Shown: positions 32,901 to 38,900 of the stretch, in pieces | How the letters are laid out: each line of letters opens with the position of its first letter | Position numbering within the stretch: position 1 is the stretch's first letter | Assembly: GCA_012295275.1 (NCBI GenBank) | Contig: CM022679.1 | Span: 20,026,342 to 20,090,341, forward strand | Reading direction: 5' to 3' | From: Chrysomallon squamiferum | Taxonomy: Eukaryota; Mollusca; Gastropoda; Neomphalida; Peltospiridae | DNA length: 64,000 nucleotides | Notes under the pieces: model-generated | Databases searched by the model: none | Told to the model about the DNA's origin: nothing | What the model saw: only the letters and a program-made list of their open reading frames with translations | Position numbers and translations under genes: made by a program

Positions 32901-35900
32901 TTTTTATACACACTTTTCTTAAACAAGGAAGGACATCGTAAGACCTATGATAAACCTGTTGTAGGGGTATCAAGCTCAGTTCAGTAACAATTCAGTATAG
33001 AGGTATAGAAGGATTGACCCTACAACCCACCAGTCCCATCAGGAAATGCCATTACTAGTTAGCTAAAGCCCACTGCAAGTAGAAACAAAGTACTTTTAAG
33101 CCTATAAATAGGCTGAACTGATATTTCAGAATCTACTAGCGAATAGGTCATTAACATGAGAACTGATAAATTTTGAGTAAAACTGTATTTTGCTGATAAA
33201 AGTTTGGCAGGTGATTCATTTCCCTCTTTTTATATTTATTTATCTGTTTATTTAATTTATTATTATTATTTAGTTTATAAGAATTATATTACATAATAGA
33301 AAAATAATCTACATTTGAATTATACATATCAGATATATAAAACTTTAAGAGAGCAATCATTACTAGTATTTTAGATTTATAACGATAATGAAAATGTTCA
33401 TAGTGACCTAATTTCTTTTACCTTTTTCTAGGTCACTTGAAATTTTTGGAAGGTCACCTTATGTTTAGAACTATAATTAGAAACAACTTTTCTTCTTCAC
33501 TCAGTGAAGTATAGCCTACTTAAAATATAGAATTTTAGTGAATGATTATATGCTTATGTATATGCTTATATATATATAGTAGACTTTAGCTAATTTTATC
33601 TATGCAACAGTATTATATGCAATTTACAATAATAATTTAAGTCAAAATCAGCACAAACTTCACCAGTAGCACAAGCCAGTAAAGAATAATACACTTCTAG
33701 AAGCATATTTAATAAGCTGGAGTATTAATAAACCTTCAACACAGCCATTTCAAAGCTTCTGATATTTTGTAGCAGGATGGTTATTTTGTGATGGTACAGA
33801 TAACTGCAAAACGGTCAACAGTCTAGCTTAAGCCAGGTATAATTTAGATTATATTTATGTAAATTAGTAAGAATCTTCTAACTATAAATATAAAGAGAAA
33901 AAACAAAAACAAGATTAGCATTTAAATATTTTAAATTTTAAATTTTAAATTTACCTACCATTTCAAAACAAAATCAATTTAAAAATAAGAGATGGTTATT
34001 TGAATTGTTATAAGATAAACCAAAACTATATTAAACATAAAAAATAAAGGCCTATATTTAAGAAGTTAAGTTTTTGGTAACTTTCTTCAAATCTAAAGTT
34101 TTGAAATTTTGATCAAAGGACATGATATAAAGGGATAATATATTTGATGCCATCTGAATAATTCTTTTGATAACTGGACCAGTTATCTTTTAATATTGTA
34201 ATTTGTTAAAATCACATATTACTAATAATCTTTCTTTATGTTAGTTATGTTTTAAGCTTGCATATTTTACAAGATTTTACACATGCTGTTTTCACTGATT
34301 GTGGGTGATGACAAAACTAGCAAAAAAAACAACAAAAAAACATTCCACCAAATAAAAATAAAGAAACAGCTAATAAGGGATCAACTTCTTGACAATATTA
34401 CACACAATACATCCAAAATATGAACCCAGCTGTCCAATATAGCTTAAAATAATTCTACCATTTAAAGATTTTTAATACTTTTGACCTGAGTTAAACACAT
34501 CTATACAAAGTGGAGTTAAAGCAACAACTTTCCATTCCACAAAAGATAAGAGAATATAAAACAAAATGTTTCAAAATAATTTACTTGAAAAACCAGAAAG
34601 ATAACCATAATACTGAATGGTAGGTTTGCATTATTGTGTTTTTTAATTACTGAAAAACTACATTTTTGTTTTGCTTTAATATTTTCTTAAACTTTAATCA
34701 GATTTATAAATTGCAAAATAGTATAATTTTGGGATGTTTTTTTGTTGTTGTTGTTGCTGTTTTTTGTTTAGTGAATGAGTAAAAGCTGAATTATTTTGAA
34801 GGTGTGTTTCAGAAGTATTAAATAACACCATTGATGTCACAGTCTCGGTCACGGTGTGCTAACTATGGGTTAGTGAGATAAACATCCTGTTCGCTAGATA
34901 AATACTTATATTCATCTACTTTTATCTCTTCAGTGAAATAACCTCCTCAAGGATGCTTGCCAATTTCTGCATCAGAAACATTTCTTATTTCCTGAAACTG
35001 CCAACTTCGTGATCTACATATGTAATTGTGATCAAAAATAGTAATCAGTTTTCTTCATGTTTAATACTAAGGACATGTTGTAAACATTTAGTAAGTAGAT
35101 TTTTTTAAATTTATGAATGGGGTGGGCCATATAACTGGATTAATAGTATTTTAGTGTATCAAAAAAAAACCATGATTTTATCCATTTAAAACATATGATG
35201 CTAAGTGAAATACCATTGGTTCAGTTTGTTATTAAAGACAAAAAAAAAATCAGACCACTTTGGCATTTACTAATTATTACAATCCAAAATAAATTTAAAA
35301 CATTTTTAATTGTTTAATAATGTTGATACAGTGAAACATTTTCATGACAAGTCGGCATTTTCAGATAATAACCAAAATTTGTTTTCACTTACAACAAAGG
35401 TGGAGAAATTGCAGAGAGTATTTCACTCAAGAGACTAACAAAGATGGTTAAGTTGTTTATTATTCACTGGTCAGTTAAAATTCAACAAATGTTGGTTAAA
35501 ACTAATAAAAGATATACAATAAACTAATGCTAATACATTTTTTCCAACCAGGTTCTGGTTAAAAGAAAACAGACAAAGATTAAAATAAAGAAAGAAGAAA
35601 ACTTAAAATACTGATTCAGACACTAATACGGGAAAGCAAGCAGCAATAGGATAAATACTGTCTTACCAAGGGTGTTTGAATATGTATCACTGATCCAACT
35701 CATTTCACGCTCACCCGTGCCCATATCTGGGGCCGGGACGTCGATACCTGCGCCTTGTAGAAAAAGCAAACAACTCGTGAGCACACACAAATATAACTAC
35801 ATGCTTCATGTTTTATTATTGTACATACCCAGTGTGTTAGCATATGCATCTGATATCCAAGCCATTTCTCTCTCTCCTGTTCCCATATCTGGAGCAGGTA

Positions 35901-38900
35901 CATCTGTACCTGGCCCTAAGTACACAAAAGTTAATTTTTCACAGAATTGTGAAAGAACAAAAGAATATTTTACATTTCATTATTATTATTATTATTATTA
36001 TTTAATTAGTTTGATAAATCCCCTTATAAAATGTAAAGTTTTCAATTTCATTTTACTGCAAACATATCAGAAATTAAGATTTCAGACATTTACATTTGTT
36101 TTTATTCTTACATTAATTAAAACAGATGCACTACTCAGTTTAAAATAATATGTGCTATATCTGTCTATTCTTCATATTTTTCAGAATATATATTTAATAC
36201 ATTTTTTCTTTATTATTGTTCACAACATGCATTTATTTTATCTAACTGATGATAACGTGAGATTAACATATCAAATTGCACCTTAGCTCTTTTCATTATC
36301 AACTAATCACATATTTATTAATTTGTGCCTTTTTAATAAATATTATTGACATATATTAATATTATTGGCATGAAAAACTTAAGGCATATATACTGATAAT
36401 ATGACAGAAAAAACATCTAATACCAAGTTAAATTACTGTGTGAGATATATATATATTGTTTTTTTTTTTTTACTTTTTTAAACTTGGATAGAAAAATTCC
36501 TTTAATCTGAAAAACAAAAACAGTAACATTTTATGACTAAATAAAACAAAATAACTATGTAAACGGAAATATAGTTAATAAATCTATGATTATTAATCAA
36601 GAATTATTCTATCATAATGCTAATCAGAAGATATATTGCTAAACACAAAATGAATAATACTAGTCCACTGATTTATTTTTCATTTTGAAATTTGATAACT
36701 TTTGAGGTCTTTTTCACATGGTTTCAGAATATTGTTTATGCATAATTGTAAAATATCAGTTGTTATAGAGACCTAGTCAGATCTTCAAACACCAGTATTT
36801 ACCAAGTAAACAAAAAAACTGGCCAGTCAGTGTCCTGTCTCCAGTGATATTTACACAGGTAACCAGACAATGTGTTAAATATACCTCAGTTGACCTTTGT
36901 AAGACTAATCCATTACAGGACGAGTACTTTTAGTATAAACATTTATAAATCTGCTGATGAATACATGCAATTTTTCCGAATTTAATAATATAAATAAATC
37001 AATAATAAATTGTGCCGTTTTATGATATATATAATGCAAGTGATTATTATTATCATTATTATTAATAATTTATATTAAACTTTTAATACGTGCTAGCAAT
37101 AACCTCATTTTCTGATTACAATTTTTGTCCCATCTGAAATTCATTGGTAGAATAAAAATACACATTACCCAACAACATAAAAAAAATATTAATTTTTTTA
37201 AATTTATAGGTTATCAGTTGTTTTTCACCTGTTTTACTTTTGTAAAAAGATATTAATTTTTTTTTGTTTTAATATTTACCTATAAAACCCTTTTTCGCGA
37301 GTTCAACTGCAAGACGTCTTGTTATTTTCTCCAGTTCATTTTCTGAATATTTTGTTGGATCAATCTTCACCCCTGCCTTTGCTCCTCCAAATGGAACATC
37401 AACCACAGCACATTTGTAGGTCATGAGAGCTGCCAATGCCTTCACTTCATCCACATTTACCAGAGGACTGTAACGGATACCTGCAGAAAAATTCTGTTTA
37501 TATTCCCCTCAAGTTAGCTATAAGCTATCTTTAAGAAATATTATAATCAAACATAAAATAATTTTAAAAATACATATACAAATTAAATCACTTGTAAGTT
37601 ATATAATCTCTTATAACAATATTAAATTAATGGATTTTTTTTTCAGTGAATATTAAGTATGTATCAAAGAATGACTACAAAAAGCATATATATATTTTAT
37701 TAAAACATTATTGATATGCTTAATGCATTCAAAATAATCTACATTAATAACCATGTTAATTTATGGAAATTATTTATAAATAATTAATGTTCAGTGCAAA
37801 TCACTTGCTTCTGCACTAAACAAAATATTGTATTTCATTTCTTCTTATTATTATTTAGTTCAAGAAAAGGCTTGTCTAAAATTAATACTCCATTCTCAAA
37901 TACTGAACAGTCAGATATTATACAGGATGACTCAGAAGCCATCATATATTTTAGGAAATAGGATTTCAGGCAAATTTTAAGACACAAAATGATATGTATA
38001 TTGAAAGAAACAATATATTTTAAAATAAATGCATGAAGTCAAATGACACAAAGTTTAATTATTACATTATTAGATTCAATATATTTGTATATATTAGTCT
38101 TTTATCACAATTTTCAGTCAGATAATTACAACTGTACTGTTTTGATATTTTAACACAAGATATTCACTAGTTAAAAACAGAATAAGCGTGATAATCATAA
38201 GAAAATGTATTATTGTTTATTATTACATTACAAACACAGAAAATGTTCATAAGAAAAGAGAAAATGTTAATAATTATTTTTAACTATATATTTTAATCAA
38301 ATTCTCACACTGCCATTGTGCCTTCATACTTCAATATTTGATATATAACAATTGTGCCTTATTCACATTATAAATTATTACAATTTATTACTGTTATGAT
38401 TAAAAAATATATATTTAAATAATCTGCTACATTAAAAAAATATATATATATTAATGTTAAAAATTGTCACCATTTTATTTCTACATAAAAAAAAATAATA
38501 GCCTTAATGTCCAGGTTATGGATTGAATCATTAAGTATATAAAAAAAAGAAATGCAGAGGTTTAACATTATTTTTTTATCCCATGTTATTGAATTAATAT
38601 CATTGTGCTGCGAACAGGTTCAGCAAGTTCTCTCCGGTTAGTATTATAAATACAATATTATAGTTTTACCTCCTTTACATGGAGTTCTATGTTGACTGTG
38701 TTGTGCTCTCCACGCTTCGATGACTTCGAATTCCCCATTATCTCTCTTTATGGGAAAGGAAAGCGCCAATACATGGTTGCATGGTTTGATAATCTTTAAG
38801 ATGCCGCGAACCCGTTTTCGTTTTTCTTCAGTTGATAGATTCTTGCCTTTCACGTCTTCAACAAGTCTATCTTCAACATAACTTGCCGCTTTATCAAAGA

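What the first reader, a model, noticed from the sequence alone, without database searches (positions are those of the whole stretch)
35667..35915. Tandem, probably mutually exclusive exons in glutamate dehydrogenase around the catalytic aspartate
Two 87-nt exons, both phase 1-1 and both with good splice sites, encode alternative versions of the same 30-residue segment including Asp219 (bovine Asp168). They differ at five residues (Pro/Ala, Thr/Ile, Ala/Ser, Ala/Thr, Ala/Ser) and about 24 of 87 bases, mostly silent, so both have been kept by selection for a long time. Including both would duplicate the active-site segment. The intron between them is only 75 bp, short enough to hinder splicing of one copy to the other. 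The result would be two isoforms with different residues lining the glutamate site. I do not recall this being described for the enzyme.
Basis: partly seen in the sequence, partly recalled or inferred. Interest (0 to 1): 0.88.

Follow-up and report, generated by a model that had tools for sequence, protein, structure and literature searches.

The report
Swappable exon pair in snail GDH
A deep-sea snail's gene for the enzyme glutamate dehydrogenase carries two interchangeable copies of one exon, which most likely lets the animal make two versions of the enzyme that differ beside the spot where the mammalian enzyme senses the amino acid leucine; a mantis shrimp's annotated enzyme variants swap the same exon.

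Summary
The minus strand holds a complete glutamate dehydrogenase (GDH) gene, 39096-26965. Exon 3 is present twice in tandem (35915-35829, 35753-35667): both 87 nt, same phase, good GT-AG sites, 75 bp apart. A genome search with the copy A peptide found only these two places. They differ at 24 of 87 bases but 5 residues (dN 0.16, dS about 2.4). Simulations with one copy drifting free never gave so few changes (0 of 4000), so both are probably working exons. Either copy gives an intact 553-residue enzyme. Mutually exclusive use is the best reading; no transcript was available. [quoted passage not shown]

Two corrections. The differences spare the catalytic motif; three (Ala/Ala/Ala against Ser/Thr/Ser) flank Asp232, the counterpart of bovine Asp241, which binds the activator leucine, so allosteric tuning is likelier than a changed glutamate site. 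And the swap is not unique: Oratosquilla isoforms X2 and X4 differ, apart from their N-termini, only in this exon, and lobster and woodlouse models hold two copies end to end at the same boundaries. Whether the duplications are independent is open. I found no paper describing it. New member of a known kind.

The parts
26965..39096 (-). GDH (GLUD1-like) gene, coding part, 13 exons counting both copies of exon 3
   Evidence: Exon model and translation; PDB match to human GDH1 7uzm, E 1.7e-266 over residues 39-553
38670..39096 (-). exon 1 (start codon; mitochondrial leader by position, inferred)
37280..37480 (-). exon 2, ends in phase 1; encodes Lys177 (catalytic, label recalled) and Arg198 (leucine-site Arg by alignment)
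35829..35915 (-). exon 3 copy A (segment [30 protein letters not shown])
35754..35828 (-). 75-bp intron between the copies; best branch-point match TGCTCAC with A at +51, 24 nt before the 3' splice site
   Evidence: own simple scoring
35667..35753 (-). exon 3 copy B (segment [30 protein letters not shown])
31138..31226 (-). exon 4, common downstream partner
30504..30602 (-). exon 5
29726..29866 (-). exon 6
29243..29380 (-). exon 7
28914..28994 (-). exon 8
28251..28374 (-). exon 9
27666..27757 (-). exon 10 (antenna region, label recalled; no second copy found here)
27355..27417 (-). exon 11
26965..27084 (-). exon 12 (last), encodes Thr551 (leucine-site Thr by alignment) and the stop codon

Best explanation
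A tandem duplication of exon 3 in a mitochondrial GDH gene of a peltospirid snail (very probably Chrysomallon squamiferum) is used as a mutually exclusive pair: exon 2 is joined to A or to B, and that copy to exon 4, giving two 553-residue enzymes. Shown: anatomy, intact splice sites and frames, silent-biased divergence of the copies. Inferred: one-or-other use (about 0.85). Likely effect (about 0.35): both isoforms stay active (the stretch with the catalytic Asp is identical) but differ in the stretch that carries the leucine-binding Asp232 (A: Ala228, Ala233, Ala235; B: Ser228, Thr233, Ser235), so the switch tunes activation by leucine or coupling between the two trimers of the hexamer. Likely enforcement: the very short intron, at the edge of steric hindrance, perhaps with protein regulators; double inclusion would give an in-frame enzyme with a duplicated active-site segment.
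For: Equal length, phase and sites; 13 silent against 5 replacement codons, NG86 dN 0.158 and dS 2.39. One-copy-neutral simulation: 0 of 4000 runs had no stop and at most 5 replaced codons; with both copies constrained 281 of 4000 did. Gigantopelta aegis (same family, 93% identical outside the segment) has a B-type segment, 1 difference from B and 6 from A, so the A-B split looks older than the split of the two genera, unless A evolved fast. Same exon, same boundaries elsewhere: Oratosquilla X2 and X4 differ, besides a 15-residue N-terminal extension, only in this segment; Homarus P0121 and Armadillidium P0122 contain two copies in tandem. Leucine site: bovine R207, D241, T559 align with R198, D232, T551, present in both isoforms; D185A of human GDH2, the same residue, is not activated by leucine (PMC9570180; mapping). 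Thr at segment position 24 is found in 279 of 281 segments of listed relatives, yet copy A has Ala.
Against: No RNA evidence from this species; no genomic DNA of a relative could be searched. No listed relative has copy A: the nearest of 281 segments differ from it by 3 residues, and of 18 named molluscs only Haliotis asinina X2 is nearer to A (4) than to B (6). Frame permits double inclusion, so nonsense-mediated decay cannot enforce exclusivity. Branch point at +51 is just outside the proposed 50-nt limit. The intron folds no better than shuffles (z 0.74, 152 of 200 shuffles at least as stable). The leucine-pocket reading rests on alignment and assumed helix periodicity; the structure paper names D241 but not its neighbours in the passages I saw, finds that D241 and R207 do not move on leucine binding, and a 2017 review still placed leucine at the active site (PMC5372004 passage). 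Leucine regulation of molluscan GDH was not looked up. My model of the Gigantopelta enzyme has pLDDT under 50 in this segment, so it adds nothing.
Confidence: 0.82

Rival explanations
1. Alternative but not strictly exclusive splicing: transcripts with A, with B and, at low level, with both or neither, the double form being an unstable or dominant-negative subunit.
For: All four combinations stay in frame; the Homarus and Armadillidium proteins carry both copies; branch point at +51 may allow the short intron to be spliced.
Against: Only 2 of 278 listed homologues carry the tandem form at these boundaries, and both look like conceptual translations of gene models; a duplicated active-site segment should not fold (inference).
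Confidence: 0.12
2. One copy is a dead relic of an exon duplication and is skipped.
For: No transcript evidence for either copy in this species; copy A has residues rare in relatives (Thr213, Ala233) and no close match in the listed relatives.
Against: Open frame, intact sites and silent-biased divergence; 0 of 4000 one-copy-neutral simulations match.
Confidence: 0.04
3. Both copies are always included, adding 29 residues.
For: Frame is kept.
Against: Would duplicate the catalytic Asp and the leucine Asp; the listed Gigantopelta protein has one segment.
Confidence: 0.01
4. Assembly artefact (haplotype or misjoin).
For: The presumed species is highly heterozygous (1.38%, PMC7142155 passage).
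Against: 27.6% divergence (24 of 87) is far beyond alleles; the flanks are not recognisably duplicated; a tandem arrangement of the same exon occurs in crustacean models.
Confidence: 0.01

Closest known systems
Vertebrate OGDH mutually exclusive exons 4a/4b (PMC7969005; abstract, sections 29 and 34 and passages seen)
   Same: Tandem exon pair in a mitochondrial enzyme of 2-oxoglutarate metabolism, short intervening intron, an allosteric property switched.
   Different: Different enzyme; Ca2+ rather than leucine; human branch points mapped 25-41 nt from the 5' splice site; combined exon length not a multiple of 3.
COQ-2 exons 6a/6e of helminths, annelids and molluscs (PMC7434440; passages seen)
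   Same: Equal-length exclusive exons that remodel an enzyme core, found in molluscs too.
   Different: Changes substrate choice; documented by RNA-seq and, in C. elegans, by mutants; different enzyme.
GDH isoforms X2/X4 of the mantis shrimp Oratosquilla oratoria; tandem copies in Homarus and Armadillidium proteins
   Same: The same GDH exon, same boundaries, alternative copies.
   Different: Copies differ at 236 (Homarus), 236 and 238 (Oratosquilla), 213, 234, 235, 236 and 238 (Armadillidium); the snail copies at 211, 213, 228, 233, 235. In Homarus and Oratosquilla the two copies are closer to each other (1 and 2) than to the snail's (5-6), which suggests a separate duplication; Armadillidium (5 within, 5-7 to the snail) does not decide.
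Human and bovine GDH1 (PDB 7uzm, 8ar7)
   Same: Family, catalytic and leucine-site residues.
   Different: Human splice variants reviewed in PMC5192433 concern the first and second exons (passages); a duplicated exon 3 there is unknown to me (recalled, not searched).

Membership tests
Tandem-duplicated mutually exclusive exons | adjacent homologous exons of same length and phase | tested here: met
   87 and 87 nt, phase 1-1
Tandem-duplicated mutually exclusive exons | both copies with usable splice sites | tested here: met
   donors 6 of 9 consensus matches each, acceptors 12 and 14 of 18 pyrimidines, within the range of the gene's other sites (5-7; 9-14)
Tandem-duplicated mutually exclusive exons | both copies under purifying selection | tested here: met
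   (simple neutral model)
Tandem-duplicated mutually exclusive exons | transcripts contain one copy or the other, not both | not testable with these tools
   no reads or transcripts of this species at hand
Tandem-duplicated mutually exclusive exons | optional enforcement: 5' splice site to branch point under about 50 nt | tested here: inconclusive
   best match at +51; threshold from PMC7969005
Tandem-duplicated mutually exclusive exons | optional enforcement: frame shift and NMD on double inclusion | tested here: not met
   87 is a multiple of 3; one of several possible mechanisms, not a requirement
Tandem-duplicated mutually exclusive exons | optional enforcement: RNA structure | tested here: inconclusive
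   the 75-nt intron alone folds no better than shuffles, z 0.74; no comparative data
Animal-type GDH (GLUD1) | full-length homology with catalytic Lys and Asp | tested here: met
   Lys177, Asp219
Animal-type GDH (GLUD1) | leucine-site Arg, Asp, Thr | tested here: met
   R198, D232, T551 in both isoforms (site from PMC9570180)

The most novel reading that the evidence does not exclude
Snails and malacostracan crustaceans, perhaps independently, duplicated the same GDH exon and use splicing to exchange the stretch that carries the leucine-binding Asp, so that tissues set the amino-acid sensitivity of GDH without a second gene, doing by splicing what apes did by the GLUD1/GLUD2 gene duplication; in the snail this could match glutamate and ammonia flux between host tissue and the symbiont-bearing gland. 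(Probability lowered from 0.30 to 0.27 on recount, because the independence of the duplications is less clear than I first wrote.)
Probability: 0.27. Interest if true: 0.8.

Novelty: new member of a known kind. Interest (0 to 1): 0.62.

Why it matters
GDH joins amino-acid and energy metabolism, and its allosteric control is a classic problem. A natural pair of isoforms that differ in five residues only, three of them around the leucine-binding Asp, would be a ready-made experiment on that control. The same exon being exchanged in two distant animal groups would make it a candidate for repeated evolution of a splicing switch in a central enzyme, beside OGDH and COQ-2.

Tried and rejected
Third copy or pseudo-copy in the introns: tblastn with 90 of the 278 listed homologues, nothing outside the exons better than E 0.14. 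Residual similarity of the flanks: upstream of A against the 75-bp intron scored higher than 295 of 300 shuffles, downstream of A against downstream of B higher than 244 of 300; base shuffles of T-rich sequence, so I take neither as proof of the duplication unit. Regulatory hairpin in the 75-nt intron: not supported. Structure model: confidence too low in the segment. Genome-wide intron length statistics: planned through the genome search, never answered. Papers on GDH exclusive exons; no listed title or passage describes one. The MEF2 shrimp paper has exclusive exons in MEF2 only. Two L. vannamei GDH cDNAs (Li et al. 2009) may be relevant, but I saw them only as cited in PMC3355100 and PMC5876294 (passages). 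The human exon survey PMC9741552 has no hit for GLUD or glutamate dehydrogenase (term search). Script errors: exon ends were off and corrected; the pattern matched nothing and was corrected.

Limits: the protein library is clustered at 90% identity, so sister isoforms of one gene are hidden; only the best 120 rows of each of three searches were seen (278 distinct proteins in all, of 7963, 2728 and 7112 hits). I had also called the crustacean and snail duplications independent; Armadillidium leaves this open. The label 'Human' is P0064, an unnamed protein whose segment equals that of human GDH1.
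Full report
What is there. The window lies in a genome of 404,604,130 bases in 22 contigs. The closest protein by identity over its whole length is GDH isoform X1 of Gigantopelta aegis (91%), a peltospirid vent snail. The Chrysomallon squamiferum assembly has 15 pseudo-chromosomes and seven unanchored contigs, that is 22 (PMC7142155 passages), and the species is of the same family. 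I therefore take the window to be Chrysomallon squamiferum; this is inference. The minus strand holds a GDH gene whose exons I fixed by GT-AG sites and homology.

The pair. They differ at 24 of 87 bases, 6, 3 and 15 of them at first, second and third codon positions; 13 codons silent, 5 replacing. Nei-Gojobori dN is 0.158 and dS 2.39 (near saturation; the Yang-Nielsen calculation failed). If one copy had drifted since duplication, simulation gives on average 13.9 replaced codons, and stops in 57% of runs; 0 of 4000 runs fit the observation, against 281 of 4000 when both are constrained (mean 8.0 replaced codons, so the real pair is tighter still) (simple model, AT-biased mutation, 7% of replacements tolerated). 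Copy B has more G or C at third positions (15 of 29) than copy A (7 of 29) or the gene without B (195 of 554); I have no explanation.

Use. Splice sites of both copies lie within the range of those of the other exons. The 75-bp intron stands apart from the other eleven (248-4440 bp). Its best branch-point match is 51 nt from the 5' splice site (own scoring). A vertebrate study puts the steric limit near 50 nt (PMC7969005), so hindrance is possible, not shown. All combinations keep the frame, so decay of frameshifted mRNA plays no part.

Relatives. Three protein searches listed 278 distinct proteins, 277 with a recognisable segment, 281 segments in all. Four of 278 hold two segments: Homarus P0121 and Armadillidium P0122 (two copies joined exactly at the exon boundary), Tigriopus P0001 (two GDH modules), Teladorsagia P0227 (an identical longer repeat, probably assembly or prediction). 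Oratosquilla isoforms X2 and X4 are listed on contigs of the same length, 49,214,070 bases, and are identical except for 15 N-terminal residues and two residues in this segment. So the same exon is alternative in a malacostracan. In Homarus the copies differ at position 236, in Oratosquilla at 236 and 238, in Armadillidium at 213, 234, 235, 236, 238, in the snail at 211, 213, 228, 233, 235. The copies differ by 1, 2 and 5 residues within these three crustaceans and by 5 to 7 from either snail copy. For Homarus and Oratosquilla this suggests a duplication separate from the snail's; Armadillidium is undecided, and its second copy shares Ser235 with snail copy B. Thirty residues cannot settle it.

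Among 18 named molluscs in the lists, 14 segments are nearer to B, two tie (Mercenaria, Ruditapes), one is nearer to A (Haliotis asinina X2, 4 against 6), and Gigantopelta X1 is almost B (1 against 6). Ala at segment position 2, as in B, occurs in Gigantopelta, Lottia, Patella, Solemya and an unnamed protein (5 of 281); a residue other than Thr at position 24 occurs only in Haliotis X2 and one unnamed protein. No listed relative holds copy A: the nearest of 281 segments differ by 3. The B type is thus at least as old as the split of Gigantopelta and Chrysomallon; the age of A is unknown. Because the library merges sequences at 90% identity, absence of a second isoform in a species means nothing here.

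What the swap changes. Human GDH1 aligns over residues 39-553. The catalytic Asp219 and its surroundings are identical in A and B. Bovine GDH binds leucine with R207, D241 and T559 from three subunits, and human GDH2 with R151M or D185A, the equivalents of the first two, is not activated by leucine (PMC9570180, section 5 and passages). These residues are R198, D232 and T551 here, and D232 is encoded by the exchanged exon. Residues 228 and 235 are four before and three after D232, on the same face if the stretch is helical, and 233 is its neighbour. A has Ala at all three, B has Ser, Thr, Ser; the commonest residues in relatives are Ser (213 of 281), Thr (279) and Ala (260). I therefore propose that the isoforms differ in leucine activation or in contacts between trimers. 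In the crustaceans most of the differing residues also lie just after this Asp. The catalytic core never differs, but it hardly varies in any GDH listed, so this is constraint, not evidence for the proposal. Against it: an older review placed leucine at the active site (PMC5372004 passage), and no measurement on a molluscan enzyme was looked up.

Novelty. Mutually exclusive exon pairs are known in enzymes: OGDH (PMC7969005) and COQ-2 (PMC7434440), the latter in molluscs too. For GDH my searches of the open-licence library found no description; a review of multiple GDH forms in animals has no hit for mollusc, invertebrate or crustacean (PMC5192433). Subscription papers were not searched. It is a new member of a known kind, in an enzyme where I know of no report, with a suggestive functional location and a parallel in crustaceans.

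Noticed in passing
P0121 (Homarus americanus GDH model), after NYHLL: A second duplicated stretch: DSVSHSLSKHFQQ... followed by ESVQESLERRFG..., i.e. two versions of the antenna exon (exon 10 here) as well. Ruditapes isoform X2 (P0140) also ends in a variant of this exon. No second copy found in this window.
   Followed up: partly
window 35667-35753: Copy B has third-position GC 15/29, against 7/29 in copy A and 195/554 in the gene without B. Cause unknown; could be exonic splicing signals.
   Followed up: no
P0001: Tigriopus californicus model of 943 aa with two GDH modules head to tail: gene fusion or two neighbouring genes joined by the predictor.
   Followed up: no
window 51145-51558, minus strand: Tetraspanin exon (Pfam PF00335, E 2.9e-11).
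   Followed up: no
window 17093-17410, minus strand: Leucine-rich repeat exon (PF13855, E 3.3e-13), by recall like CNOT6/CNOT6L.
   Followed up: no
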